NCBI RefSeq assembly: GCF_947387515.1 | Contig: NZ_CANDOB010000001.1 | Span: forward strand, 124,001-188,000 | Origin: Alkalihalobacillus sp. CinArs1 | Lineage (GTDB): Bacteria; Bacillota; Bacilli; Bacillales; Guptibacillaceae | Length of the DNA stretch: 64,000 bases | Reading direction: 5' to 3' | Part shown: positions 19,589 to 33,174 of the stretch, one piece after another | Position numbering within the stretch: the first letter of the stretch is position 1 | Layout: every line of letters begins with the position of its first letter | Made by a program: the position numbers and the translations under genes | The notes under the pieces: model-generated | What the model saw: the letters and a program-made list of their open reading frames with translations, nothing else | Database searches by the model: none | What the model was told of the DNA's origin: nothing

Positions 19589-20968
19589 TTAGCTATCTTT
19601 TTGCAATTTTCTTCTAACCACTACACCTGTCGCTGCCATCGTAGCTAGAACAGCTGCCAATATCCACTCGATCGGCATCTGCTGTTCAGCAGTACCTCCC
19701 ATACCTGTTTTTGGCATGTCCGTTGGCATACTCATTGCAAACTTGTCTGGGAACTGGTCAGTAAACGCTCCTGAAAGTCCTTTAGCAGGCTTGTACATAT
19801 GAGCATAAGCTTCTCTTACAGAATCATAAGCAGCATCATAATCTTCGTTTGTGTAGCTATCAAATGCTCCGACTAATTGGTTCACGTGCATTTGGAGACC
19901 TTCAGCTAATGCATCCGACTTGAGACGGCCTTCTGTCGCTGTTTCTAAGAAGCTAGAGAAGTCAGCACGGTAGTTATCTAGAGCCTCTAATGCTTTTTCC
20001 TTCGCTGCTTCGTCTTCCGCACCTGTTGCTTGTACATATTCTACGAAGTTACCGATATGACCAGACCACATTTCATTAAACTTCATGCCAGCCTCTTCAC
20101 CGTAAACTGATGAAATTGCTGCAGTGAGAGCTTCTGTATTTTTATTTAGAGCTTGCGCTGACGCTTCAAAGTCGTCTGAACCATCGATACCGTTCTGCAT
20201 CGTCATCATTGCCAAACCAGCATGCTCTGAAAGCAGGTGACCAAGAGTTGCACGGAGGTCTGAGGCAGGTGTTACGGCTTTAGTCTCATCGAACTTCTCA
20301 GGGAATTGATCGGTAATCGCACTTGAGAAACCTTTTGCTACTCCATGCATGTGAGCAATCGCTTCACGTTCTTGTGCATAAGCTTTCTCGTAATCTCCTG
20401 CAACATAGCTATCGAATGAACCGATTAGCTGGTCGATGTGCATCTGAAGACCTTTTGTTAAAGATTCTGCTTCTAGACGTTCACCAGTTGCTGTTTCAAG
20501 GAATTTTGAAAACTCTTCTTTATAACCTTCAAGATTGTTAAGCGCTTCTTGCTTTGCTTCTTCATCTTCACTTCCTGTTGCTTTAACATAATCTACGAAG
20601 AATCCGATGTGGTCACTCCAGATTTGGTTGAACTGATTACCAGCTTCTTCACCGTATACTGAAGAAATTGCTCCCGTTAGCGCTTCTGTATTTTCGCTAA
20701 GTGCTCCAGCTGATGCTTCGAAATCATCCGCACCTTCTGCTCCTTTTCTCATCGTTTCAACTGCAAGGTATGCGTGCTCACTAAGTAGATGTCCTAGTGT
20801 AGCTCTAAGATCTGCTGCCGGCGTTTCAACTGTAGGCTTGTCCGCATGGTTACCGTGATCATCTGCAAATGCGCCTGTCGGCATCAATAGAGAAAAACTT
20901 AGTGGGACGATCATGAGTCCTTTCTTCCAGTCGATTACTCTTTTCTTCAAATTATTTTCCGTATTCAT
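19589..20968 (-). CDS. Secreted, probably wall-anchored protein with two histidine-bearing repeats
   Basis: A 459-residue protein whose family function I do not know. A signal peptide ends near GAFA (35). Two repeats of about 177 residues follow (50-226 and 234-410, offset 184) and are very similar. Each begins TPA(A/S)DLRATLGHLLSEHA and looks all-helical. Histidines are kept between copies: H60/H244, H65/H249, H120/H304, H177/H361, H206/H390, suggesting metal or haem binding. The C-terminus has MPKTG (418-422), a hydrophobic stretch and VRRKLQKDS, resembling an LPXTG sortase signal with M in the first place. No cysteines are present. It is monocistronic, with its own terminator and an ECF-type promoter shared with the sigma factor gene at 32305. 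Confidence 0.75.
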   Translation of the reverse strand: MNTENNLKKRVIDWKKGLMIVPLSFSLLMPTGAFADDHGNHADKPTVETPAADLRATLGHLLSEHAYLAVETMRKGAEGADDFEASAGALSENTEALTGAISSVYGEEAGNQFNQIWSDHIGFFVDYVKATGSEDEEAKQEALNNLEGYKEEFSKFLETATGERLEAESLTKGLQMHIDQLIGSFDSYVAGDYEKAYAQEREAIAHMHGVAKGFSSAITDQFPEKFDETKAVTPASDLRATLGHLLSEHAGLAMMTMQNGIDGSDDFEASAQALNKNTEALTAAISSVYGEEAGMKFNEMWSGHIGNFVEYVQATGAEDEAAKEKALEALDNYRADFSSFLETATEGRLKSDALAEGLQMHVNQLVGAFDSYTNEDYDAAYDSVREAYAHMYKPAKGLSGAFTDQFPDKFAMSMPTDMPKTGMGGTAEQQMPIEWILAAVLATMAATGVVVRRKLQKDS

Positions 20969-20995: not shown

Positions 20996-21030
20996 TACAT
21001 CTAGCTAACGGAATGGATTAGAAGTTGGAT
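20996..21030 (-). promoter_or_regulatory. ECF-sigma-type promoter of the repeat-protein gene
   Basis: On the minus strand ATCCAA (21025-21030), 14 bases, then CGTTAG (21005-21010) within the 15-base block CGTTAGCTAGATGTA. The same bipartite arrangement with the identical 15-base block precedes the ECF sigma factor gene at 32929-32963. The 14-base spacers differ, as expected of promoter elements. Confidence 0.75.
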
Positions 21031-21140
21031 CATCTTTTTTATTATTTTTTTAAAAATACTCGTGATAATCCTCTAGAACCCTTGATAATAATGGATTTAG
21101 AACGGTTATAGAATTTGGGGTAATTAGTCGTAAAATAAAA

Positions 21141-21175
21141 AAGACCCCTTATGCTACTCAAGCAAAGGGGCCTTT
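21141..21175 (-). terminator. Terminator after the GNAT gene
   Basis: A stem built on CCCCTT / AAGGGG with inner GCT / AGC pairing, followed on the minus strand by six T residues. Confidence 0.75.
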
Positions 21176-21184
21176 CAGTTCTGA

Positions 21185-21616
21185 TTATTTGTAGACCATA
21201 ATGGTTTGCATTTCTTTGAATCCAATATCTTTATAGATATATTTCGCAAAATTAGATGAGTATACATTTAAACGTATTTCCTCAAAACCTTGTTCTTTAA
21301 GATCACGAATACTTGCTTGTACTAATTTTTTTGAATAGCCTTTTCCTCGAAACTCTGGAAATACAAATACATCATAGATGAATCCGTGTTTGATACCCGT
21401 AAAGTAATCCGTGTTTTCTCCAATCAATACCCAACCCGCGATTTGATCGCCATCTCGATATACAAGATGATATCCCCCGCGTTCAAGGATTGAAGTAACG
21501 ATTTCGATCGCTTTGTCTTCTTTTATAATTCCAGGGTTTGTCGTCCCCTCATTTACCGACTGAATTGAATTCGATAAGATGTATTCTTTTTCTTCGGCAC
21601 TTGCACGTTCAATCAA
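21185..21616 (-). CDS. GNAT family N-acetyltransferase
   Basis: A 143-residue acetyltransferase. The GNAT acetyl-CoA site (motif A) is visible as VFPEFRGKGYSKKLVQAS (about 91-108), with the preceding strand FIYDVFV and a C-terminal NFAKYIYKDIGFKEM motif B. Substrate unknown. It has its own terminator. The gap to the next GNAT gene upstream (87 bases) leaves co-transcription open. The start is ATT-free and ordinary, with GGAGGGG upstream. Confidence 0.82.
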   Translation of the reverse strand: MIERASAEEKEYILSNSIQSVNEGTTNPGIIKEDKAIEIVTSILERGGYHLVYRDGDQIAGWVLIGENTDYFTGIKHGFIYDVFVFPEFRGKGYSKKLVQASIRDLKEQGFEEIRLNVYSSNFAKYIYKDIGFKEMQTIMVYK

Positions 21617-21703
21617 CTATGTCCCCTCCTTGCAGTTCTTTTATGGTATTTCTTTATAATGAAGCTTTGTTCCTGCTAGTTTATCTAATTGGGTAACTTT
21701 ACC

Positions 21704-22267
21704 TCACTGCCTTACCTTTGCATAGATTGATGTGTCCCTCAATTGTTCTCCATCTATCGAAACGTCTTCATTCTGTAAAATTCCTTCTAGTGAAAATCCT
21801 AGTCGCTCTATGATTCTCATACTACGATTATTTTTCGTGTCACACCTTACTTCCACTCTTCTCGCATGTAATTCCTTGAACGCAAATTCTGTTATTGCTC
21901 GAACAGCTTCAGTCATATATCCATTACCAGAATGTCGAGTGTCAATCCAATACCCTACTTCAAATTTTCTAACGTTCCAATCAATTCTATGTAAGCCGGA
22001 TGACCCTATAAAATCCCCAGTATCTTTATGATAGATGTGTAACCTTAAATCTTCTCTTTTAAGAAAGGCGGCATGAGCTTCTCTTACGTTTTCTTCTACC
22101 TCTTCCTTAGATTGGTCGTTTTTCGCAAAGGGCATCCATAGCTTTAATTCAGCTCTTGATGCTTGAATCGATTCATGCACGACAAGACCATCTCCAGGGA
22201 GAGGACATCGTATATACAACCGTTCAGTATGAATCTCGCGAGGAAAATCTATTAAAATCGGTTTCAT
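21704..22267 (-). CDS. RimJ/RimL-type GNAT acetyltransferase
   Basis: A 187-residue acetyltransferase of the RimJ/RimL/SpeG-like branch, which acetylates N-terminal or side-chain amines of proteins and small molecules. The N-terminus TERLYIRCPLPGD, the middle WIDTRHSGNGYMTEAVRAI motif A (about 117-135) and the ending NNRSMRIIERLGFSLEG are typical. B. subtilis YdaF and YjcK are similar in layout. The target cannot be stated. Ribosome binding site GGAGG is close to the ATG. Confidence 0.82.
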   Translation of the reverse strand: MKPILIDFPREIHTERLYIRCPLPGDGLVVHESIQASRAELKLWMPFAKNDQSKEEVEENVREAHAAFLKREDLRLHIYHKDTGDFIGSSGLHRIDWNVRKFEVGYWIDTRHSGNGYMTEAVRAITEFAFKELHARRVEVRCDTKNNRSMRIIERLGFSLEGILQNEDVSIDGEQLRDTSIYAKVRQ

Positions 22268-22325
22268 TTAGCAGCCTCCAAAACGTTATAAATGTCAGAA
22301 TTATATCACTAAACCAAATGATTTG

Positions 22326-23111
22326 TCATTTATAGCCCAGCAACACTTTCACTCTGATCTCTTCTTTAAATTTGCCTTCTGAATGAATACTTAATAACTC
22401 ACGTTTTACTTCAGCTTCAAAATCATCAACATTACTTCCCAGGTAGCTCTTCAATCCGTATGAAGTGGAATAATGATGACCTAATAACGTTTCGATTGTC
22501 CAATAATGCTCATAAGGTTCACATTCTACTTTTTCTATAGAAAATGGAGACTTCTCAATCACTTCTTCATGACTTAATGTAGGATGGGAATATGTACCGC
22601 TACCTGCTCGACGCTCCTCGCCATACCACTTCTTAGCAACCTTAGAGAATGCAATCTGCCAATCCTCTAAAACGTTATCTGGTTGATAATCGTCAATAAC
22701 CGCTATTCCACCAGCTTTCTGGATTGTAGGATAAAGCTTTTCTAAAAAATGCGAACGATTCAGCCAGTGAAAAGACTTCCCAATTGTTACTAACTTAAAT
22801 GATTCATGATGTTGAAGGTTAATAAATTTTTCTACATCTGCTAACTTCCACTCGATATTCGAAATTTTTAATAGGTTTGCCATTTTACTTGCTTCCTGTA
22901 ACATTCCTTTATCAACATCTACACCTACGATATGTTTTGACCAATCTGCTAACCTGATCGCAAGCTGACCTGGTCCACAACCTACATCCAACACTCGATC
23001 TTGAGACGACAGATGAAAACGGTCCACTACTAACCGAATGACTTCGGAAGGATAACGTAGCCTATACGCTGCATAAAATGGTGCCGCACCTTTAAATAGA
23101 TCTGTGTAAAT
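22326..23111 (-). CDS. Class I SAM-dependent methyltransferase with apparent ATT start
   Basis: A 261-residue methyltransferase with SAM motif I VLDVGCGPGQLA and an acidic post-motif region (VGVDVDKGML). The first ATG/GTG/TTG codon in frame is a GTG at 23027, but the frame is open for another 28 codons. That extra N-terminus (YTDLFKGAAPFYAAYR) is the segment normally found at the start of this methyltransferase family. A strong GGGAGGAG site (23118-23125) lies 6 bases before an ATT codon at 23109-23111. The true start is therefore probably ATT, or the gene has lost its ATG. Substrate unknown; the gene stands alone. Confidence 0.72.
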   Translation of the reverse strand: MYTDLFKGAAPFYAAYRLRYPSEVIRLVVDRFHLSSQDRVLDVGCGPGQLAIRLADWSKHIVGVDVDKGMLQEASKMANLLKISNIEWKLADVEKFINLQHHESFKLVTIGKSFHWLNRSHFLEKLYPTIQKAGGIAVIDDYQPDNVLEDWQIAFSKVAKKWYGEERRAGSGTYSHPTLSHEEVIEKSPFSIEKVECEPYEHYWTIETLLGHHYSTSYGLKSYLGSNVDDFEAEVKRELLSIHSEGKFKEEIRVKVLLGYK

Positions 23112-23117
23112 TTGAAA

Positions 23118-23125
23118 CTCCTCCC
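23118..23125 (-). promoter_or_regulatory. Ribosome binding site that points to an ATT start
   Basis: GGGAGGAG on the minus strand, six bases upstream of ATT at 23111. No ATG, GTG or TTG lies in frame near it. Confidence 0.65.
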
Positions 23126-23195
23126 AGAATCCCTTTTTGAAAGACGGTTTCTCTTATATACTTAAACAATACCATACTAGAAAGGAAAGAATCTC

Positions 23196-23819
23196 ATGGA
23201 TCTATCCGTATTACTATCATTCTTATTTGCTGCGGTAGTATTAACCCTCATGCCTGGCCCTGACAACTTGTTCGTGCTTGCTCAGAGCATTTCTCAGGAT
23301 AAGCGGGCTGGTATCGCTACTTCTCTCGGATTATGCTCAGGACTTGTTGTACATATAAGTGCTGCCGCAATTGGAATATCTGCAATTCTGTACCAATCAT
23401 CACTTGCCTTTTCAATCGTAAAATATTTGGGAGCAGCTTACTTACTATACCTTGCATTTCAAGCATTTCGCGAAAGGAAGCAATCTACACTCCTAAAAAA
23501 CCAACGAGACCAATCTTATATGGCTCTTTATCGAAAAGGGATTATTATGAATATACTTAACCCTAAGGTTTCTTTATTTTTCCTAGCTCTTCTTCCTCAG
23601 TTTGTTAATCAACATTCTGGATATGCTTCTTTACAAATGGTGTTGTTAGGAATGATATTTATCGTCCAAGCTTTTCTTATCTTCACCTCAATCAGCTTGT
23701 TCGCTAGCAGTATCAAAGGACTTCTCCTAAAAAATTCAGCGGTCCTTGGGAAAATAAATGTAATCAAAGGTGTCTTGCTTGGGATTATCGGTATCCAGAT
23801 CGCATTTAGCAGCAAGTAA
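23196..23819 (+). CDS. LysE/RhtB family amino acid exporter
   Basis: A 207-residue membrane protein of the LysE translocator family, with six hydrophobic segments. The N-terminal signature MPGPDNLFVLAQSI (about 21-34) and GLCSGLVVHISAAAIGI are typical. Members export amino acids such as lysine, threonine or homoserine lactone; the substrate here cannot be assigned. It is transcribed away from the methyltransferase gene and followed by a terminator. Confidence 0.88.
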   Translation: MDLSVLLSFLFAAVVLTLMPGPDNLFVLAQSISQDKRAGIATSLGLCSGLVVHISAAAIGISAILYQSSLAFSIVKYLGAAYLLYLAFQAFRERKQSTLLKNQRDQSYMALYRKGIIMNILNPKVSLFFLALLPQFVNQHSGYASLQMVLLGMIFIVQAFLIFTSISLFASSIKGLLLKNSAVLGKINVIKGVLLGIIGIQIAFSSK

Positions 23820-23867
23820 CATTTTCTGTTTAAGAAGTGCACATGACTAAAGCTCATAATGTCGAGT

Positions 23868-23899
23868 AAAGCCACGCGAATCCAATTCGTGTGGCTTTT
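23868..23899 (+). terminator. Terminator after the LysE-family gene
   Basis: GCCACGCGAA pairs with TTCGTGTGGC around a short loop, followed by T5. Confidence 0.8.
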
Positions 23900-23974
23900 T
23901 GAGTGCGCTGTTTCAAATAAATGGGTATTGGGTAATGGAGATTGTTAGTCACTTATATAGAGAGGAGAGCCTTC

Positions 23975-24679
23975 ATGAGAAGTTTATACATTATCGGAAC
24001 CGCTTTCTTTCTGTCAGGTTGTTCTTCCATCGCTGTATTAAATCCAAAAGGAACAGCGGGCGAAAAGCAATTGGACCTTCTCTTATTAAGTCTTTTACTG
24101 ATGAGTATCGTACTAGCAGTTGTTTTTACTCTTTTTGTGAGATTTTTAGTAAAGTACCGCGAAAAGCCTGGACAGGAAGATGACTTCCCAACTCAAAAAG
24201 CTGGCAATAAAAAGCTCGAAATAAGTTGGATCGTCATCCCTTTTATTATCATCATCGTTCTTGCTGTACCTACTTTTGCAACAACTTATCAGCTTGATGA
24301 GCCTTTTAACAATGACCAAGATCCTTTAACGATTAAAGTGACAGGAGAACAGTTTCAGTGGTCGTTTTACTATCCTGAATATAACATTACCTCAAGAGAC
24401 GAATTACGCATCCCTGTAGATCGCCCCATTACATTCAAGCTCTCATCAAAAGATGTTATCCATTCATTTTGGATTCCGCAACTAGGCGGAAAAAGGGATG
24501 CTCTTCCTGGAAAGGAAAACACTTTACGGATGACCGCCATCGAAACAGGTACATATAGCGGGAAGTGTGCTGAACTCTGTGGAGCGGAGCATGCTTTGAT
24601 GACGTTTGATACGATCGTTTTAGACAAAGATGACTTTTCAACTTGGATAGAGAAAATGAAGGACGGTGAGAACAACTGA
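23975..24679 (+). CDS. Haem-copper oxidase subunit II with intact CuA site (QoxA-like N-terminus)
   Basis: A 234-residue membrane-anchored lipoprotein (lipobox LSGC, C16) with two membrane segments (about 34-58 and 83-103) and a cupredoxin domain. The N-terminus (SSIAVLNPKG) resembles quinol oxidase subunit QoxA. All six CuA ligands are present: H163, C198, E200, C202, H206 and M209. QoxA of B. subtilis lacks these. There is no fused cytochrome c domain like that of B. subtilis CtaC. It is thus more likely a cytochrome c oxidase subunit fed by a separate cytochrome c. ATG at 23975 has GAGGAG upstream; its stop overlaps the next start. Confidence 0.85.
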   Translation: MRSLYIIGTAFFLSGCSSIAVLNPKGTAGEKQLDLLLLSLLLMSIVLAVVFTLFVRFLVKYREKPGQEDDFPTQKAGNKKLEISWIVIPFIIIIVLAVPTFATTYQLDEPFNNDQDPLTIKVTGEQFQWSFYYPEYNITSRDELRIPVDRPITFKLSSKDVIHSFWIPQLGGKRDALPGKENTLRMTAIETGTYSGKCAELCGAEHALMTFDTIVLDKDDFSTWIEKMKDGENN

Positions 24680-26628
24680 TGAATAGCATCTATCATTATT
24701 TTCGTACATTACCATCAGACATCATTTTAGCTGACATATCTTTTGTGATCATCATCATCGCAACGACCTTCTTACTTACGAGATACCATAAATGGAAGTG
24801 GCTCTGGAGTTGGATCACGTCAACAGATCATAAGAAGATTGGCATCATGTATTTGGTTGTATCTTTCTTATTTTTTCTTAGAGCAGGGTTAGAAGCTTTA
24901 TTGATCCGAATGCAACTTGCTTTTCCTGAAAATGAATTCTGGGTATTTCAAGGAGAACGATTCAACCAACTTACAAGTACACACGGAACAGTCATGATCT
25001 TTCTTGTTGCTACGCCGCTATTAATCGGATTGATGAATGTGATCGTACCATTGCAAATCGGTGCAAGAGACGTTGCTTTTCCATTCATGAACTCATTGAG
25101 CCTCTGGCTGTTTATTTCAGGGGGAATCTTAATAAACGTCAGCTTTATAGCTGGAGGTTCACCAAATGCTGGCTGGACTACATACGCTCCTCTATCACTC
25201 AACGAATTTACCCCGGGACCTTCGAACAGCTATTATCCGATCGGACTACAAGTCGCAGGACTCGGAACAATTATGGGTGCGATCAACTTTATCGTAACGA
25301 TTATAAAAATGAGGGCACCTGGGATGAAGTTTATGAGGATGCCGCTATCAACTTGGTCGATGCTCATTACTTCGGTACTCATCGTGTATGCATTTTCCGC
25401 TCTTGCGGTAGCTTTGCTGTTATTAACGTTCGAACGACTTTTCGGAACAATCATCTTATCAGGATCTGAAGGAAATCCACTGATCTGGCAACATTTGTTC
25501 TGGATATTCGGTCACCCTGAAGTGTATATCATCGCACTACCTGCTTTTGGGATATTCTCAGATGTTATCAGTACTTTTTCGAAGAAGAAATTATTCGGGT
25601 ATACTTCAATGGTGTTTGCAATCATTTTGATCGGATTCTTAGGGTTTATGGTTTGGGTCCACCACATGTTTACAGTTGGACTAAATGCAAATATCAACGT
25701 TTTCTTCGCCTTGACCACAATGTTGATCGCGATCCCTACTGGTATCAAAATCTTCAATTGGTTGTTTACGATGCGTGGTGGACGAATAAGATTCGATACC
25801 CCTATGCTTTATGCTCTCGGCTTTATCGTAACGTTCGTAATGGGCGGAGTTACTGGCGTCATGCTTGGCTCAGTTCCAGCAGATTATCAATATCATGACA
25901 GCTATTTTGTTGTTGCACATCTACACTATGTCATTATAGGCGCAACGATTTTCGGAGTGCTTTCAGGGGTTTATTATTGGTGGCCAAAGATGTTCGGTAA
26001 GATGTTAAACGAAAAACTTGGTAAATGGAATTTTTGGACGTTTGTGATCGGATTTCATTTCACTTTCTTTCCGATGCATATTTTAGGATTGATGGGGATG
26101 CCGAGACGAGTCTTTACATATCCAGAAGGAGAAGGACTTGGTTGGCTTAATTTTGTGAGTACATGCGGTGCATTTTTAATGGGAATAGGCGTATTGTTTT
26201 TTATGCTAAACATCTATCTCACGACTCGGTACGGAAAATTTGTTCAGCAACACGACCCATGGATGAAGCGAGGACGAACGTTAGAGTGGACGGTTCCTAG
26301 TCCTCCCCCACCCTATAACTTCGCACGAGTTCCAGTCGTAACTTCCGGTGAGCCGTTATGGACTGCCTATGAAGCACAGAAACACAACATCGATTTCGAA
26401 GGCGATTATGATGAGATCCACATGCCTTCTTCAAGTTCATTGCCGTTCTTTATGGGAATGGCATTTCTAATCGCTTCCTTTGGCTTTGTTTTCGAAATTT
26501 GGTCTGTAGCAATTCTAGGTATGGCTGGTGTCTTCACTACTATGACAATTCGGTCTTTCCAGAATAAGAATGGCTATTTCATACCGAAAAACAAAGTGAT
26601 CTATAACGACAAGGGAGTGGGTTACTAA
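24679..26628 (+). CDS. Haem-copper oxidase subunit I (A1 type)
   Basis: The 649-residue catalytic subunit that reduces oxygen and pumps protons. Haem ligands H in STHGTVM and in the VAHLHYV pair, the CuB ligands HPEVY and VHHMF, the D-channel glutamate of GHPEVY and the K-channel lysine of TGIKIFNW are all visible, so it is a complete A1-type enzyme. There are 14 to 15 hydrophobic segments, as in QoxB/CyoB. It overlaps the subunit II stop and the subunit III start by one base each, showing coupled translation. Confidence 0.93.
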   Translation: MNSIYHYFRTLPSDIILADISFVIIIIATTFLLTRYHKWKWLWSWITSTDHKKIGIMYLVVSFLFFLRAGLEALLIRMQLAFPENEFWVFQGERFNQLTSTHGTVMIFLVATPLLIGLMNVIVPLQIGARDVAFPFMNSLSLWLFISGGILINVSFIAGGSPNAGWTTYAPLSLNEFTPGPSNSYYPIGLQVAGLGTIMGAINFIVTIIKMRAPGMKFMRMPLSTWSMLITSVLIVYAFSALAVALLLLTFERLFGTIILSGSEGNPLIWQHLFWIFGHPEVYIIALPAFGIFSDVISTFSKKKLFGYTSMVFAIILIGFLGFMVWVHHMFTVGLNANINVFFALTTMLIAIPTGIKIFNWLFTMRGGRIRFDTPMLYALGFIVTFVMGGVTGVMLGSVPADYQYHDSYFVVAHLHYVIIGATIFGVLSGVYYWWPKMFGKMLNEKLGKWNFWTFVIGFHFTFFPMHILGLMGMPRRVFTYPEGEGLGWLNFVSTCGAFLMGIGVLFFMLNIYLTTRYGKFVQQHDPWMKRGRTLEWTVPSPPPPYNFARVPVVTSGEPLWTAYEAQKHNIDFEGDYDEIHMPSSSSLPFFMGMAFLIASFGFVFEIWSVAILGMAGVFTTMTIRSFQNKNGYFIPKNKVIYNDKGVGY

Positions 26629-27221
26629 TGCCATCTCTAGCTGAAAAAAACCTATTTAGCGACCACCATGCGCAAATGAATATTTTAGCTTTCTGGTTTT
26701 TGATCGGTGCAGAGGTAGTGGTATTTGGTTGCTTATTCGGTATTTATGTATCAGTACAGGAGTTAACCAACAACGGACCAGGAGCAAAGGAACTCTTCAA
26801 CCTTTCTGAGATTATCGTAAGTACGATCGTGCTGTTGTCTAGTAGCTTTACATGTGCACTAGGTGTTTATACGTTAAAACTTGGTAAAAAAACGATGACC
26901 TTAGTTTGGTTTCTTCTTACAATCAGTTTGGGATTAGGATTCGTCATTCTTGAAGGAATTGAATTTATGGCTTATGTCGCGGAAGGCGCAACGATTAGTA
27001 GTAGTCCTTTCCTCGGTGCTTTTTATATGCTTTTAGGTACTCATGGAGCACATGTCCTCTTTGGGATCGTATGGATCTTTATGTTGCTCATTCAATTGAT
27101 GATGTATGGGATCACTAAAGAAACTGCACCAAAGCTGTTTATTGCTAGCTTATACTGGCACTTTATAGATGTAGTCTGGGTCTTTATCTTTACAGTAGTC
27201 TATCTACTCGGAAAGGTGTGA
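26628..27221 (+). CDS. Haem-copper oxidase subunit III
   Basis: A 197-residue subunit with five membrane segments, as in QoxC/CyoC and five-helix CtaE forms. Typical phrases are FWFLIGAEVVVFG, LGAFYMLLGTHGAHVLFGI and the final SLYWHFIDVVWVFIF. It stabilises subunit I and its proton uptake path. Third of four overlapping genes. Confidence 0.92.
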   Translation: MPSLAEKNLFSDHHAQMNILAFWFLIGAEVVVFGCLFGIYVSVQELTNNGPGAKELFNLSEIIVSTIVLLSSSFTCALGVYTLKLGKKTMTLVWFLLTISLGLGFVILEGIEFMAYVAEGATISSSPFLGAFYMLLGTHGAHVLFGIVWIFMLLIQLMMYGITKETAPKLFIASLYWHFIDVVWVFIFTVVYLLGKV

Positions 27222-27499
27222 GTGAAATGAAGAAAGAGAACGACCACCTTATAAAAATTTCGGTTATGTTCGTTACGATGATTCTTCTAACGCTTATTGC
27301 TTTCTACATCGTATACAGTGAATGGATCTCTAATGAATTTCTACCATATGTACTTATCTTCTTAGCGATGATTCAAGTGGTCATTCAATTGATCTTATTT
27401 ATGGATATTAAAGAAAAGGAGGGAAGGTATCGAATTACATCTGTTGCGGCAGGTGGGTTCATCGCAGTTCTAACGATTTTCTTTCTAGCTATATTATAA
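27218..27499 (+). CDS. Haem-copper oxidase subunit IV
   Basis: A 93-residue protein with three hydrophobic segments, typical of the CyoD/QoxD/CtaF subunit IV family. It begins with a GTG that overlaps the subunit III stop (GTGTGAGTG); an ATG three codons later (27227), preceded by AAAGG, is a reasonable alternative. Last gene of the oxidase operon, followed by a strong hairpin. Confidence 0.85.
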   Translation: MSEMKKENDHLIKISVMFVTMILLTLIAFYIVYSEWISNEFLPYVLIFLAMIQVVIQLILFMDIKEKEGRYRITSVAAGGFIAVLTIFFLAIL

Positions 27500-27501
27500 A
27501 A

Positions 27502-27529
27502 AGAACCAGGGGTGAAGTCCCCTGGTTCT
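27502..27529. terminator. Bidirectional terminator after the oxidase operon
   Basis: AGAACCAGGGG (27502-27512) pairs perfectly with CCCCTGGTTCT (27519-27529), between converging genes. Confidence 0.85.
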
Positions 27530-27530
27530 C

Positions 27531-29693
27531 CTATTTTTCTCGCATACCGAAACTCTTACTTAGTAACAATAAAGACTCGTTAATCTTCCAAACATAATAG
27601 AGATCATTGATTCGACCTTTGAGTTCTTTATTATCTTTCCCCGCATCCAACTTTTCTACTTTGTCACGAATCGAATCCAAACTATACATGACGGTTTTCG
27701 TATTCCCGTGTATGCCCTTCGATAACGCTTCGATATTGTAATTGATAATATGATAAGTTTTCTTTAGCTCTTCTTCCAACTCCGGTACAGAGAGTATCGC
27801 TCTGTTTCGATTTGAAGAAGCAAGGAGGTGCTTAGCGTAGTAATTTATTGCAGTAACAACTGTAATCCACTGCTCAATGTTTGATTTCTGCATAATGGAT
27901 ACTTTATTTCTTAAGGGCTTCGCATCGTTAAGAACATTCTGGTATTTCTCATCTAACTCAAACGCCATGTTAATAAACTGGTGATGGGAGTTCGTTTCCG
28001 TATAAGAATGGAGGTAATCCGATACATACGTTCGCAACTTCACAAAGAATTCAGTTGCTGCGACAGCTACTTTTTCTTTTGTTTTTCTAGGATAGATTAT
28101 AGCTGCGGCAAGGGAACCGATCGCCGCACCAACTAACGTATCGATAACACGCGACATAATAAGTTCACTCGTTATCCCACCCATTATGAAGTCATACATA
28201 ATTGCAATGAGCGTAGTCATCCAGAACATCATGATTCCATATGATATAGGCATCAAATAAAAGGCAAGAAACACACAGCAAAACAATGTGATCAACTCAA
28301 ATACCGGTTGTCCAGATAAGGAAAGCGCAATTCCAAATCCTGCTATAGCCCCAAAAATTGTACCGATGGATCTCTCGGTTGCTTTCTGAAACGTCATACC
28401 AACCGTATCTGTTCCTAACAATACGATAAAGGTTGATAAAAGCACCCAGTATTGATGTGTAGGCGATAAGAAATAGCCGACTACAATCGCCACACTACCA
28501 GCCACGATTGCTTGTAACGCTTTATTCTTTGCTAGCCTAGCATCTTCTGATGTGTTGTCAGCTACCTCATCTGCCTGAACTTCCTTAACTGATTCCAGAT
28601 TTACATCCCTTCGCTTCCCTAATTGCCTGGAGCTCTCTACTAAGTGATTCGATATCGCTTCGATTCTCCTAATTAACCAAAGCCAGTCCTTATCGACCTC
28701 ATGATTTTTTTGCATGGCTTTTATCATTGAACTAAGTTCGCTAATAACCGATTCAGTTTTTTTAAGATTACCAACCACGTCATGAGTACGCAGTACTTCG
28801 GCATCACGTATCGATTCTACAACTTTGTACAACAGTACTCTTATGTTCGTATGTTGTAATACGTGTAGATCCTTTAAACGGTCTACAACATAATATAGAG
28901 ACTGAATTAACATCTCTGCATCAAATATATAGAACCTCAATTGCTCAGCATCGATACCAGGCCAAATTTCCTCAGGCTCTGTGTTATTAAGAGAGCTTGA
29001 AATGACTTGAGAATAAGAATTGATCTTTTTAATATCTTTTCGAAGCTGAGAAGGTACAGACTGATTAGTAGTAGGGTTTGCAATCGCCTCTAACACCAGA
29101 TCAAGGGTCATATTCGTTTGAGTGTGAAATGAGCGGACGCTATTAATCAACTCAACTTTCGGTCGGTTTTTAATGAGATAAAACCGATATACATATGAAT
29201 AGCCTCCTCCAATGATGATACCAAGAAGATACCACCCAATATCTTCTATCTTCAATTGTAGTAAAGTAGAAAAATATGTTGATAAAAATGCAACGGTGAA
29301 CATCGCGAAATACCGGAACCCAAATTGCTGTAAATAATATGCTAGAAAAATGACGATTAAAAATAAGAAATCTATCGCAAATGGAATAACGCTTAAGGAT
29401 GTGCTCACCGTTAACGCAACTGCACTTGAAACAACTAAAATCAGCGTAGAGAATTTCTGCTTTTTCTCTGTATCATCATTCACTAAAAATAATGTCAGTA
29501 AGCTAACGACTCCAGCTAATATAGAAGCAGGAAATGAAGCACCTAATGTAAAGGCAAAGATGAGCATAGTGAGTGACGAAGACAGAACGCTAATCGTAAT
29601 ACGTAAAGCCTGGTGTAATCTCGATCTTCCTGGATCTGCAGGAGTTACACGAATAAGTGAATGAAGAAGCGACCTATGCATTGTTTTTTTCAT
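27531..29693 (-). CDS. FUSC family membrane protein (aromatic acid exporter-like)
   Basis: A 720-residue protein with two blocks of hydrophobic segments (about 28-180 and 390-540), each followed by a long soluble helical region. This is the architecture of the fusaric acid resistance / AaeB / YccS superfamily. The second block has the FUSC phrase HQYWVLLSTFIVLLGTDTVG with EATERS-like KATERSIGTIFGAIAG. Family members export aromatic carboxylic acids or are of unknown function. No adapter or outer-membrane partner is near, as expected in a Gram-positive. Function remains an inference. Confidence 0.8.
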   Translation of the reverse strand: MKKTMHRSLLHSLIRVTPADPGRSRLHQALRITISVLSSSLTMLIFAFTLGASFPASILAGVVSLLTLFLVNDDTEKKQKFSTLILVVSSAVALTVSTSLSVIPFAIDFLFLIVIFLAYYLQQFGFRYFAMFTVAFLSTYFSTLLQLKIEDIGWYLLGIIIGGGYSYVYRFYLIKNRPKVELINSVRSFHTQTNMTLDLVLEAIANPTTNQSVPSQLRKDIKKINSYSQVISSSLNNTEPEEIWPGIDAEQLRFYIFDAEMLIQSLYYVVDRLKDLHVLQHTNIRVLLYKVVESIRDAEVLRTHDVVGNLKKTESVISELSSMIKAMQKNHEVDKDWLWLIRRIEAISNHLVESSRQLGKRRDVNLESVKEVQADEVADNTSEDARLAKNKALQAIVAGSVAIVVGYFLSPTHQYWVLLSTFIVLLGTDTVGMTFQKATERSIGTIFGAIAGFGIALSLSGQPVFELITLFCCVFLAFYLMPISYGIMMFWMTTLIAIMYDFIMGGITSELIMSRVIDTLVGAAIGSLAAAIIYPRKTKEKVAVAATEFFVKLRTYVSDYLHSYTETNSHHQFINMAFELDEKYQNVLNDAKPLRNKVSIMQKSNIEQWITVVTAINYYAKHLLASSNRNRAILSVPELEEELKKTYHIINYNIEALSKGIHGNTKTVMYSLDSIRDKVEKLDAGKDNKELKGRINDLYYVWKINESLLLLSKSFGMREK

Positions 29694-29787
29694 AATTCTA
29701 TCTTAGCTAAATTAACTTGTATGTTCCACACGTCGATTCGCTCCCCTTCTTTAGCACTTCCGGTGTTGTTTTTCTAATGAAATAAAA

Positions 29788-29817
29788 AGCCTTTGAAGAC
29801 TATTATCTTCAAAGGCT
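29788..29817 (-). terminator. Terminator after the BCCT gene
   Basis: AGCCTTTGAAGA pairs with TCTTCAAAGGCT around a 6-base loop, followed on the minus strand by T5. Confidence 0.85.
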
Positions 29818-29826
29818 GAATAGCTA

Positions 29827-31359
29827 TTAAACAGTTTTCGGATCTTTTGGTGCTTTTGTCTTCTTCTCTGTACTACGTTGTTTTCTAGGTACTTCCGCAC
29901 TGAAAGACTTAATCATTCCCCAACATGTAAACAATAGAATGATCGTTAGTGGGAACGCACTCACGATGATAGCAGTCTGCATGCTTTGTAGACCACCTGT
30001 AATCATCAGAACAACTGCAGATGCAGCCAACACAAAGCCCCAGCTGAACTTAACGAAGTTCGGTGGGTTTAAGCTACCGTTTGTTGTTTGCATACCGAGA
30101 ACAAATGTAGCAGAGTCAGCTGATGTAATAAAGAAAGTAGAGATTAATAACAGAGTCACGACCGTTAGGATACCTCCAAGAGGAACCTGCTCATAGAGAT
30201 AAAACAATGCTGTTTCAAGTCCCTGTCCTGCAATATCTGTACCTTGGTTAAAGTCGAAGAAAATAGCTGAACCGCCAAACACTCCGAACCAGAATGCACA
30301 AACAACTGTAGGTACTACGGTAACAGCAATCATAAACTCTCTGATCGTTCTCCCCCTAGAAACTCGGGCGATAAACGTTCCTACGAACGGAGACCAAGCG
30401 ATCCACCAAGCCCAATAGAAAATTGTCCAACCTTGAACCCATGACTCATTTTCTGGATTCATAGGTGCAAGACGCATCCCCATTCCAAAAATGTTTTGTA
30501 CATATTCACCAAAAGTAGTTACGAATAGATCCAGAATGAATTTCGTTGGACCTAGGAAGATAAATAGTCCAAGTAAAAGAACAGCAAGAATCATGTTCGT
30601 GTTACTTAAATATTTGATTCCTTTTTTGATTCCTGTTCCAGCGGAAATTGTAAACAGCACTGTGATGACAGCGATGATGATCAACTGCACCGTGAAGTTG
30701 TTAGGTATATCCGTGAGGTAAGCTAAGCCACCATTAATCTGCTGAGCACCAAGACCAAGGGATGCTGCAACACCAAAGATCGTTGCAAATACTGCAATGA
30801 TATCGATAGTGATCCCAATCGGCCCTTTCACACGATCTCCAAGCAACGGATATAGCGTTGCACTGATAAGACCTGGTGCCCCTTTTCTAAATTTATAGTA
30901 AGCAAGAGCAAGAGCAATAGTAGCGTAGATTGCCCACGCATGAAATCCCCAGTGAAGATATGTATATCTTAAAGACTGGTGAGCTGCATCAACAGTTCCA
31001 CCTTCTCCTCCAAGTGGGGGTGTAGAAAAGTGAGACATTGGTTCTGATACTCCAAAGAATAAAAGTCCAATTCCCATTCCTGCACTAAACAGCATTGCGA
31101 ACCAAGTTAACCTGTTATACTCTGGCTTATCTGAGTCTTTACCTAGCTTAATGTTACCGAATCTACTAAAAATCAAATAAATGGCAAAAATCAGGAAAAA
31201 TGTTGCTGCTAATTGATAGAACCATCCAAACTGATTTAAAAAGAAACTTTTCGATGTGGTCATAACCTGGTCAAGATTCCCAGGCATAATCACGCCCCAT
31301 CCTACGAAGACGATCGCGATTGCGATGCCTATCCAGAATACTTTTGTTACTTTATCCAT
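29827..31359 (-). CDS. BCCT family glycine betaine/choline/carnitine transporter
   Basis: A 510-residue sodium-coupled secondary transporter for quaternary ammonium compounds, like OpuD, used for osmoprotection. It has twelve hydrophobic segments and the BCCT signature around FYWAWWIAWSPFVGTFIA (about 318-335) with the following RVSRGRTIREF. The charged C-terminal tail (KQRSTEKKTKAPKD) could sense osmotic strength, as in BetP/OpuD, though this is inferred. The ATG at 31359, 8 bases after GAGGAG, is preferred over a GTG that overlaps the ribosome binding site. Confidence 0.88.
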   Translation of the reverse strand: MDKVTKVFWIGIAIAIVFVGWGVIMPGNLDQVMTTSKSFFLNQFGWFYQLAATFFLIFAIYLIFSRFGNIKLGKDSDKPEYNRLTWFAMLFSAGMGIGLLFFGVSEPMSHFSTPPLGGEGGTVDAAHQSLRYTYLHWGFHAWAIYATIALALAYYKFRKGAPGLISATLYPLLGDRVKGPIGITIDIIAVFATIFGVAASLGLGAQQINGGLAYLTDIPNNFTVQLIIIAVITVLFTISAGTGIKKGIKYLSNTNMILAVLLLGLFIFLGPTKFILDLFVTTFGEYVQNIFGMGMRLAPMNPENESWVQGWTIFYWAWWIAWSPFVGTFIARVSRGRTIREFMIAVTVVPTVVCAFWFGVFGGSAIFFDFNQGTDIAGQGLETALFYLYEQVPLGGILTVVTLLLISTFFITSADSATFVLGMQTTNGSLNPPNFVKFSWGFVLAASAVVLMITGGLQSMQTAIIVSAFPLTIILLFTCWGMIKSFSAEVPRKQRSTEKKTKAPKDPKTV

Positions 31360-31539
31360 TCCATCCACTCCTCATTTTATTATGTAGCTAACTTATATAT
31401 CTAGTAAATAGTAACCACATAGTTACTAATCATAATAAATTTTCTGGAATTATTCAAATCGGTTTTCATGTTTAGTACAATATACCCCGTTCTTATCGAC
31501 TAGAAACCACTGCTCCCACTCCTGAAATTAACCAAAAAT

Positions 31540-31573
31540 AAAAGCAGGGAACTCATAAAGTAGCCCTGCTTTT
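31540..31573 (-). terminator. Terminator of the sigma/anti-sigma operon
   Basis: AAAAGCAGGG (31540-31549) pairs with CCCTGCTTTT (31564-31573), followed on the minus strand by ATTTTT. Confidence 0.75.
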
Positions 31574-31583
31574 ATCATCACTT

Positions 31584-32321
31584 TTACAAATCTGAACTCA
31601 TGACGATTTCACCTTTAGGAGTTTTACTCTTCGCATTCGGTTCTAGGGTGATTGCCACTGTGGTCCAATCATGATCTCCTTCGTAATTAATTTCGAAGGA
31701 AACGGCACCTTTTCCATTTTCACCGGGGACAAATGAACCTGCTCTATAAGGCTTTTCACCTTCTAATAACCAAACTTGATACACCTGATCTTCCTCTACA
31801 CCTTCAAGGTCATCTGCTTGAACGACTAGATTGGTTTTGCCATTGTCAGATACTAAAGCTGCCGCTCCTTTAGATGTCGAAGCTCCCGAAGGTTCTAACT
31901 GTACTGCTTTTAACAATGACGATACTTCTGTTTCAGAGGTTGCTCCTTCATCTGTGATATACGTATAAGCATTTCCAGCTAGCGATAGAAATAATGCAGC
32001 TGCTAGTGCTGGAGCTAACCATTTGGGAGATCGTTTGGTCTCATTCATATGAGTTACATTGGATCTCGTTTCTTCTGTGTCTACTTCCTCCACATCATCT
32101 GACGCACTTTCAAATACATTTTGAAGCACCCGTTCTTTCATTCCTGAAGGAGGCTCTTCTGGTGTTGAGAGATAAGGAAGGTCACTCGTTAAGTCTTCCA
32201 GCTCTTGCAACTCCTCTCTACAGTCTGAGCAAGATTCAAGGTGAGCCTCGAACGTTTTCTTTTCTTCATCGGTTAACGTTCCATTGAAATAGTCAAGTAG
32301 CTGATCACAATTGTTTTTCAT
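31584..32321 (-). CDS. RskA-type anti-sigma factor
   Basis: A 245-residue membrane anti-sigma factor. The N-terminal zinc-type anti-sigma domain has AHLESCSDCREEL (H-x3-C-x2-C, about residues 27-34). A single membrane segment (about 105-125; WLAPALAAALFLSLAGNAY) separates it from an extracytoplasmic RskA domain (QVYQVWLLEGEKPYRAG then EPNAKSKTPKGEIVMSS). It would hold the co-encoded ECF sigma factor until an envelope signal releases it. The gene overlaps the sigma gene by 17 bases. Confidence 0.87.
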   Translation of the reverse strand: MKNNCDQLLDYFNGTLTDEEKKTFEAHLESCSDCREELQELEDLTSDLPYLSTPEEPPSGMKERVLQNVFESASDDVEEVDTEETRSNVTHMNETKRSPKWLAPALAAALFLSLAGNAYTYITDEGATSETEVSSLLKAVQLEPSGASTSKGAAALVSDNGKTNLVVQADDLEGVEEDQVYQVWLLEGEKPYRAGSFVPGENGKGAVSFEINYEGDHDWTTVAITLEPNAKSKTPKGEIVMSSDL

Positions 32322-32877
32322 CTGAGACCCCTCCTTTCTCTGCCAGATTAGTTTTAAGATGTTTGAGTGCGAGTCGAATCCGGCCTTTTACTGTACCGAG
32401 TGGGAGGTCAAATTCTTGGGAAATTTTTTTATGCGTCATTCCTTTAAAATAAAACATCTCGATAATCCTTTTTTGTTCCTCTTTCAATTTAGAAACGGCG
32501 GCTCTTAGTACGACGCCTCTTTCTTTCCACTCGACTTGGTCTTCTACAGAAGCTTCATCACTATGAAGAGCATCTCGCTCATCTAGTTCAAAATCTGGCT
32601 CTCTCGATTGTTTACGAAGATGATCGATAGCAGTATGACGCGTCATTGTCAATATCCAGGAAGAGAACTTCCCCTTTTCTTCACTATATTGAGCTCGACC
32701 TTTCCAGAGTTTTATGAACACTTCTTGTAGTACTTCTTCTGACAGCCCTCCGTCCTTTACGATGCGATAAGAAAATGAATACAGTAATTTTTCATACCGA
32801 TCATAAAGGATTTCTAAGGCTTCCTTGTCCTTTGCCTGCACCCTCTCGTAAAGGGCAGCATCGCTCAATTCTCTCAT
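32305..32877 (-). CDS. ECF RNA polymerase sigma factor, SigK-like
   Basis: A 190-residue extracytoplasmic-function sigma factor. Region 2 (YDRYEKLLYSFSYRIVKD... EVFIKLWKG, about 22-65) and region 4 (IEMFYFKGMTHKKISQEF with LGTVKGRI, about 135-170) are clear, with no region 3 between. The RskA-type partner places it with the SigK-like ECF group. ATG at 32877, six bases after GGAG, was chosen over an in-frame start 7 codons upstream. It is preceded by the bipartite motif it shares with the repeat-protein gene at 19589, suggesting autoregulation. Confidence 0.88.
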   Translation of the reverse strand: MRELSDAALYERVQAKDKEALEILYDRYEKLLYSFSYRIVKDGGLSEEVLQEVFIKLWKGRAQYSEEKGKFSSWILTMTRHTAIDHLRKQSREPDFELDERDALHSDEASVEDQVEWKERGVVLRAAVSKLKEEQKRIIEMFYFKGMTHKKISQEFDLPLGTVKGRIRLALKHLKTNLAEKGGVSDEKQL

Positions 32878-32928
32878 ACCATTCTCCTTTATTCTCACAA
32901 GTGATCTCCACCAGAAGAGTAGAATGTC

Positions 32929-32963
32929 TACATCTAGCTAACGTCTACCTCTCCTATTTGGAT
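32929..32963 (-). promoter_or_regulatory. ECF-type autoregulatory promoter of the sigma operon
   Basis: On the minus strand ATCCAA (32958-32963), 14 bases, CGTTAG (32938-32943), inside the 15-base block CGTTAGCTAGATGTA identical to that at 20996-21010. The rest of the 330-base gap 32878-33207 holds only a perfect 7-base inverted repeat, GACTGAC / GTCAGTC (33038-33054), with no T-run, and the fabL leader. Confidence 0.75.
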
Positions 32964-33174
32964 GTGTTTTTCAATGAAAATATATGGTTTTAACGAAAGA
33001 GAGCCCTTAATTAAACAGGACGCACTCTACGAAAAGCGACTGACATCGTCAGTCTAATAAGCTTCTTGTTTTCTGTCGTTTAGTATATCATACTGTTTTC
33101 ACTGATACCGCAATCGACCTTAGCACTCATGGAATGCCTGCAGAACTTTTCACACACCTTTTGTTCATGTATGA

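What the first reader, a model, noticed from the sequence alone, without database searches (positions are those of the whole stretch)
20996..32963. An ECF sigma factor and a distant surface-protein gene share one bipartite promoter
Seen: ATCCAA, 14 bases, then the identical 15-base block CGTTAGCTAGATGTA lies upstream of the ECF sigma/RskA operon (32929-32963) and of the secreted repeat-protein gene (20996-21030), about 12 kb apart, in the same orientation and distance class. The spacers differ in sequence, so it is not a simple duplication. Known: ECF sigma factors usually control their own promoter, and M. tuberculosis SigK, whose anti-sigma is RskA, has a CCATCC-like -35 at a similar spacing. 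Inference: the repeat protein is a target of this sigma factor and the 15-base block includes an unusually long -10 region.
Basis: partly seen in the sequence, partly recalled or inferred. Interest (0 to 1): 0.8.

Follow-up and report, generated by a model that had tools for sequence, protein, structure and literature searches.

The report
Sigma factor regulon anchoring surface proteins
The two matching DNA signals are very probably promoters read by one envelope-sensing sigma factor, which in many relatives of Bacillus appears to switch on together a surface protein and the enzyme that would anchor it to the cell wall.

Summary
The repeat protein ends in a sortase-type signal, MPKTGMGG. The full element is TGATCC(A)-N16-CG(T/A)TAGCT (counted from TGATCC), a normal ECF layout. 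Its exact form occurs in 71 of 397 genomes of the order, reversed control 0 of 397. Of 80 repeat genes found by protein alone, 70 carry it upstream at <=3 mismatches; 53 have sigma plus RskA nearby, 59 a sortase. In 150 genomes, 50 of 51 with the full repeat protein have RskA, versus 4 of 99 without. A -10 variant (CGA) appears in both promoters together, though as one evolutionary switch. Likely further members: DoxX, a YtkA-like lipoprotein, CHRD proteins, tandem micropeptides. No transcript was measured; signal and surface-protein function are unknown. It resembles, but is not, the M. tuberculosis SigK-RskA-MPT83 cassette.

The parts
21003..21032 (-). Predicted ECF promoter of the repeat-protein gene: -35 TGATCCAA (21032-21025), N14, -10 CGTTAGCT (21010-21003)
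   Evidence: exact match to the extended motif
19589..20968 (-). Secreted two-repeat surface protein (459 aa) with C-terminal sorting signal; two plasmid homologues are labelled 'copper amine oxidase' in public annotation, without Pfam support
19694..19717 (-). Sortase-type motif MPKTGMGG, followed by a hydrophobic stretch and RRK
   Evidence: one of two DNA matches in the genome to a PxTG(x)GG-coding pattern, control 1; NCBIfam GVDTG sorting domain E 5e-5, 23.4 bits, below its cut-off of 29
32936..32965 (-). Predicted autoregulatory promoter of the sigma/RskA operon: ACATCCAA, N14, CGTTAGCT (2 mismatches to the extended motif)
32305..32877 (-). ECF sigma factor, likely start ATG 32877 (open frame from GTG 32898); SigK-like, no cysteine
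31584..32321 (-). Membrane anti-sigma factor: zf-HC2 domain, one hydrophobic stretch (by eye), RskA_C domain

Best explanation
The two elements are promoters of one ECF sigma factor held by its membrane anti-sigma RskA. When an envelope signal releases the sigma factor, it transcribes its own operon (from an ACATCC variant here, perhaps more weakly), the repeat surface protein, and a class F-like sortase encoded elsewhere in this genome; the sortase would link the surface protein to the wall through MPKTGMGG. DoxX and a YtkA-like lipoprotein are probable further targets. Shown by sequence: the shared promoter, its conservation, gene clustering, co-occurrence. Inferred: that this sigma factor reads it, RskA release, sortase-substrate pairing. 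Unknown: the signal, and what the repeat domain does.
For: Short motif three times in the genome, before these gene types. Extended exact motif in 71 of 397 genomes and 24 of 135 genera of the order, reversed control 0 of 397; 14 of 14 genomes of the genus at <=1 mismatch, control 0. Of 119 unique exact sites (my reading of its rows and): 69 sorting-signal proteins, 4 broken or truncated repeat genes, 19 sigma, 13 a QWLNAPP secreted family, 2 sortase, 2 DoxX, 2 YtkA-like, 2 a weakly Fn3-like protein, 4 before micropeptide arrays, 2 unexplained. Protein-selected test: 66 of 80 repeat genes at <=2 mismatches and 70 of 80 at <=3; shuffles 0 and 1 of 1600. 104 of 105 sites at <=2 mismatches in those loci lie before a repeat, sigma, QWLNAPP or sortase frame. 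Order sigma-rskA-repeat in 51 of 80 loci, 33 of them exactly sigma-rskA-repeat-sortase. Co-occurrence 50 of 51 versus 4 of 99. 12 of 12 further two-repeat genes that I picked from RskA-bearing genomes have the motif at <=3 mismatches; 5 of 5 single-domain homologues do not (best 5-6). Third -10 base agrees in 49 of 49 loci where both promoters were readable (42 CGT, 7 CGA).
Against: No transcription data. Ten of 80 repeat genes lack the N14 motif at <=3 mismatches: two have it at N15 (L312, L321), eight do not (three Planococcus, three Exiguobacterium, one Paenibacillus, Bacillus sp. SG-1). The sigma gene's own site is weaker: <=2 mismatches in 28 of 54, <=3 in 39 of 54. Only 1 of 59 sortase genes in those loci has its own motif at <=3 mismatches; the rest would depend on the repeat-gene promoter. 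The CGA/CGT change is one event on the sigma tree, so not statistically independent, and 5 of 54 loci were dropped for lack of a readable sigma site. In extra CGA genomes several sigma sites are at chance level. G056 has repeat gene and motif but no RskA match; G059 has the motif but no RskA, with only a repeat-gene remnant. Another ECF factor lies beside the second class F-like sortase, so cross-reading is possible. Co-occurrence is not corrected for phylogeny, and the cut between full and weak repeat matches was set after seeing them.
Confidence: 0.88

Rival explanations
1. The element is a promoter, but of another ECF sigma factor in the genome (for example the one beside the second class F-like sortase); the SigK-like factor is merely another target.
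For: A second ECF sigma gene lies divergent from a MPQTGMGG protein and a second class F-like sortase.
Against: The genome scan at <=3 mismatches lists no site in that second module. The repeat protein tracks RskA in 50 of 51 genomes, and sigma-rskA precede the repeat gene in 51 of 80 loci.
Confidence: 0.07
2. The element is a binding site for a classical regulator, not a sigma-factor promoter.
For: It is bipartite and there are no transcription-start data.
Against: No inverted symmetry by eye; -35/-10-like halves with fixed spacing and an A-rich stretch upstream; in 62 of 71 sorting-signal genes the chosen start codon lies 30-49 nt after the -10. That this is ECF-promoter layout is recalled.
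Confidence: 0.03
3. Chance similarity or a simple duplication of upstream DNA.
For: The two 15-base blocks in the window are identical, and the short six-plus-six pattern is common by chance in relatives.
Against: Spacers and flanks differ; 0 of 397 genomes match the reversed extended motif; the halves stay conserved over many genera while spacers diverge.
Confidence: 0.01

Closest known systems
SigK-RskA-MPT83/MPT70 cassette of Mycobacterium and Yersinia (ECF18/ECF19; PMC7509140, passages seen)
   Same: ECF sigma beside an RskA-type membrane anti-sigma; a surface protein next door under a sigma-specific promoter; best solved-structure match of the sigma is SigK 4NQW.
   Different: The surface protein is an unrelated two-repeat protein with a sorting signal, not the lipid-anchored MPT83; a sortase belongs to the regulon; the anti-sigma has a zf-HC2 domain, while M. 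tuberculosis RskA does not rely on a zinc motif (PMC7406223, passage seen); the sigma has no cysteines, whereas SigK has a conserved pair.
Class F sortases (NCBIfam NF033748)
   Same: Best NCBIfam match of the sortase, E 1e-41; a homologue beside a repeat gene on a Planococcus lenghuensis plasmid is annotated class F sortase.
   Different: 142 bits, below the curated cut-off of 166. Physiological roles of class F sortases are said to be unknown, and deleting all four in Actinoplanes missouriensis gave no phenotype (PMC13251363, passages seen); here one is tied to a regulon and a probable substrate.
SigW-type ECF regulons of Bacillus subtilis (recalled, not searched)
   Same: Promoter geometry with about 16-nt spacing and a CGT-type -10 (recalled).
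   Different: -35 is TGATCC rather than TGAAAC (recalled); anti-sigma is RskA-like; targets are a surface protein and a sortase.

Membership tests
SigK/RskA (ECF18/ECF19) | ECF sigma with regions 2 and 4 only, SigK as nearest relative | tested here: met
   Pfam Sigma70_r2 and r4_2; NCBIfam SigK model second best, below cut-off; best PDB match SigK 4NQW
SigK/RskA (ECF18/ECF19) | Adjacent membrane anti-sigma with RskA_C domain | tested here: met
   RskA_C E 5e-17, zf-HC2 E 7e-8; the genes overlap
SigK/RskA (ECF18/ECF19) | Cysteine pair of SigK (94% of ECF18, 56% of ECF19 in a PMC7509140 passage) | tested here: not met
   The window sigma factor contains no cysteine
SigK/RskA (ECF18/ECF19) | Neighbouring MPT83-type protein (fasciclin domain: recalled) | tested here: not met
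   The neighbouring surface protein has no fasciclin match in Pfam
SigK/RskA (ECF18/ECF19) | Assignment to an ECF group by the published group models | not testable with these tools
   Those models are not held here
Class F sortase | NCBIfam class F model above cut-off | tested here: not met
   142 of 166 bits, but best of the sortase models
Class F sortase | Sortase domain | tested here: met
   PF04203 E 1e-23; one of 3 sortases in the genome
Sortase substrate (LPXTG-like) | Signal peptide, PxTG motif, hydrophobic stretch, positive tail | tested here: met
   By eye on the sequence; MPxTG invariant in 19 of 19 aligned homologues; anchoring itself not tested

The most novel reading that the evidence does not exclude
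One SigK-like sigma factor across Bacillales runs a complete private surface-display programme: a wall-anchored protein whose repeat domains may bind metal or heme through conserved histidines, its own class F-like sortase, redox or metal accessories (DoxX, YtkA-like), and in some genera tandem arrays of 21-30-residue leaderless peptides, in one case beside an exporter-like gene. It would give class F sortases their first physiological role and RskA signalling a new output.
Probability: 0.3. Interest if true: 0.85.

Novelty: new variant of a known kind. Interest (0 to 1): 0.7.

Why it matters
Class F sortases are described as having unknown physiological roles (PMC13251363, passage seen). Here a class F-like sortase, its probable substrate and a dedicated sigma/anti-sigma switch form one conserved unit with a promoter precise enough to predict targets in other genomes, so substrate, signal and function become directly testable. 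It also extends the SigK-RskA-surface-protein logic of Mycobacterium and Yersinia to Bacillales with different hardware. I saw no account of this regulon in the listings (ECF sigma factor + RskA + sortase: 0 papers; class F sortase + sigma factor + anti-sigma: 2 papers, both on Actinoplanes); several of these lists were capped (20 of 59, 20 of 1,138, 10 of 54, 8 of 23, 10 of 16), and the library lacks most subscription journals.

Tried and rejected
The label 'copper amine oxidase' has no Pfam support. Sigma residues explaining CGT versus CGA: about 20 positions differ in the CGA group, which is one clade, and the most attractive (Tyr at reference position 101) also occurs in L322, which has CGT promoters, so none is named. 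The short pattern ATCCAA-N14-CGTTAG gives chance hits: its reversed control matched about 25 of 61 genomes, and ten fetched sites with no regulon-like gene (L034, L043, L047, L055, L073, L074, L079, L084, L089, L090) were dropped from the 168 by its filter on the -10; sites kept there with 2-3 mismatches and no regulon-like gene include L031, L083, L087 and L088. The sigma-70 scan was at chance (37 found, 37.0 expected). Region L385 was fetched in error and left out of the counts. Some broken repeat and sortase frames (several in G008) may be sequencing errors.
Full report
Observation. The two elements are in the window as described, on the minus strand, with differing spacers. In the whole 4.03-Mb genome ATCCAA-N14-CGTTAG occurs three times, its reversed control never. 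The third copy, about 0.9 Mb away, lies directly before a sortase gene whose best NCBIfam model is class F (E 1e-41, 142 bits, below the 166-bit cut-off). The repeat protein ends in MPKTGMGG, a hydrophobic stretch and RRK, a sortase-type signal.

The motif. The short pattern is not specific in relatives (31 of 61 genomes, reversed control about 25 of 61). Aligned sites show a longer element, TGATCCAA-N14-CGTTAGCT. With it the own genome has two exact sites (repeat, sortase), two with one mismatch (before a YtkA-like lipoprotein and a DoxX protein) and the sigma operon at two (ACATCCAA). At three mismatches the genome scan is near its control (49 hits against 40), so nothing weaker is claimed there. 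In the genus, 14 of 14 genomes have sites at one mismatch or fewer, control 0. In the order, 71 of 397 genomes and 24 of 135 genera have exact sites, control 0 of 397. In 70 promoters of homologous repeat genes (chosen at <=3 mismatches) TGATCC and the CG of the -10 are invariant, the third -10 base is T in 61 and A in 9, the spacer is weakly conserved and an A-rich stretch lies upstream. TGATCC-N16-CGTTAG is a normal ECF geometry (recalled).

What lies downstream. Searches classified 168 unique sites of mixed stringency after a filter on the -10 that dropped ten chance-like loose sites (listed under Tried and rejected). Of the 119 exact ones, by my reading: 69 sorting-signal proteins (two of them short, CHRD-type; CHRD tested for L082), 4 broken or truncated repeat genes, 19 sigma genes, 13 members of a secreted family ending YYDQWLNAPPxQPP (one cut by a contig end), 2 sortases, 2 DoxX, 2 YtkA-like, 2 weakly Fn3-like, 4 before micropeptide arrays, 2 unexplained (L240, L264). 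Some labels rest on sequence patterns or eye rather than a family search.

A test not selected by motif. A protein search of genome contigs with an alignment of repeat proteins found 261 relatives, the best 80 kept, from Alkalihalobacillus algicola (98% identity) through Rossellomorea, Halobacillus, Fictibacillus, Sporosarcina, Planococcus, Exiguobacterium and Paenibacillus. Upstream of these 80 genes the motif (N14) is present at <=2 mismatches in 66 and <=3 in 70, versus 0 and 1 of 1600 shuffles; 25 of 1092 other ORFs in the loci have it at <=2. Eight of 80 have no site at <=3 mismatches with spacing 13-15. Within the loci 104 of 105 sites at <=2 mismatches (N14 or N15) lie before a repeat, sigma, QWLNAPP or sortase frame. 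Sigma plus RskA lie within the flanks of 53 of 80 and a sortase in 59 of 80 (some loci are cut by contig ends). Among recognised genes the order sigma-rskA-repeat occurs in 51 of 80, 33 of them exactly sigma-rskA-repeat-sortase on one strand. The sigma gene itself has the motif at <=2 mismatches in 28 of 54 and <=3 in 39 of 54. In the window's genome the sortase lies elsewhere but carries its own copy of the promoter.

Co-occurrence. In 150 genomes of the order the repeat protein (E<=1e-10) is found in 57 and RskA in 54. Leaving out six weak or partial repeat matches (E 1e-11 to 1e-21; a cut made after seeing them), 50 of 51 repeat-bearing genomes have RskA and 4 of 99 others (Fisher p 8e-34); with the six included, 50 of 57 and 4 of 93, p 3e-27. 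Phylogeny is not corrected for. Exact-motif genomes have RskA in 21 of 22 (sample membership inferred from handle numbers); the exception, G059, keeps only a remnant of the repeat gene behind an exact motif. G056 has repeat gene and motif (2 mismatches), no RskA match, and a sortase frame split in two. Twelve of 12 two-repeat genes that I picked in further RskA-bearing genomes have the motif at <=3 mismatches; 5 of 5 single-domain homologues do not.

Co-variation. Where both promoters could be read (49 of 54 loci; laxer scoring that ignores the third base), the third -10 base agrees in all: 42 CGT/CGT, 7 CGA/CGA. On the sigma tree each promoter type shows one change, so this illustrates rather than proves; within Halobacillus the promoters follow the lineage of the sigma factor. 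Seven genomes with CGA repeat promoters were looked at. Every repeat-gene site found in the seven is CGA; one repeat copy (G157 second) gave none. Sigma sites: CGA at 0-1 mismatches in G020, G130, G157 and 3 in G119; 4 in G049 and 5 in G088 and G146, which is chance level (in G146 a CGT site ties), and a second sigma copy of G146 gave none. So new support comes from G020 and G119 only.

Mechanism. Best supported: RskA holds the sigma factor at the membrane; on an unknown envelope signal the sigma factor is freed and transcribes its operon, the surface protein and the sortase. The best solved-structure match of the sigma factor is SigK of M. tuberculosis. Histidines 65, 120, 177 and 206 of the first repeat, and their counterparts in the second, are invariant among the 63 close homologues; in the more diverse 19 only 65 and 177 (and 249 and 361) are. 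The single-domain homologues on Nocardioides and Methylocystis plasmids appear to keep all four (my reading) and also sit beside sigma genes.

Known systems. Passages of PMC7509140 describe a minimal mpt83-sigK-rskA cassette with a SigK site before mpt83, also in Yersinia. The present system works like it but fails two features (cysteine pair, MPT83-type neighbour), adds a sortase and uses an unrelated surface protein. Class F sortases are said to have unknown physiological roles (PMC13251363, passages). I therefore call it a new variant of a known kind.

Limits. No transcript or protein data; no structure; the paper library is partial and several search lists were capped; the best 80 of 261 homologues were examined; genome samples are drawn evenly from the order, not complete.

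Noticed in passing
L216 (G204), L253 and L081 (G241, G048), L200 (G155): Exact copies of the promoter motif stand before tandem arrays of near-identical leaderless micro-ORFs with strong ribosome sites: six of a 30-residue type followed by a gene that looks by eye like an ABC exporter (L216), seven of a 29-residue type in the 1.2 kb scanned (L253, L081), and seven of a 21-residue type (L200).
   Followed up: partly
L282 3002-5161 (G000 contig C5): A second module in the same genome: a secreted protein with MPQTGMGG (DUF4397-like by recollection, not searched), a second class F-like sortase behind it, and a different ECF sigma gene divergent from them.
   Followed up: partly
L371 (Nocardioides sp. 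JS614 plasmid), L372 (Methylocystis rosea plasmid): Single-domain homologues of the repeat domain lie next to sigma-70-family genes in Actinomycetota and Alphaproteobacteria, suggesting an old link between this domain and sigma-factor signalling.
   Followed up: partly
L370 (Planococcus lenghuensis plasmid): A 12-kb plasmid carries the repeat gene plus a class F sortase with no sigma/RskA annotated; upstream is a four-mismatch site that keeps TGATC and CGTT.
   Followed up: partly
H1 and H2: Repeat proteins are labelled 'copper amine oxidase' in public annotation although Pfam shows no such domain in the window protein or its 62 aligned homologues among the families listed.
   Followed up: yes
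L078 (G059): Exact motif before a remnant of the repeat gene in a genome with no RskA match at E<=1e-10: target and regulator may have been lost together.
   Followed up: yes
L126, L275 and relatives: In 11 of 14 genomes of the genus the best class F-like sortase match lies in a frame of 328-355 residues, with an extra C-terminal stretch (weak RGI_lyase match in the two tested), against 222-250 in the window's genome and G003.
   Followed up: no
window 23942-27221: Cytochrome oxidase-type subunit genes (II, I, III by appearance) lie between the repeat gene and the sigma operon on the opposite strand; no link was tested.
   Followed up: no
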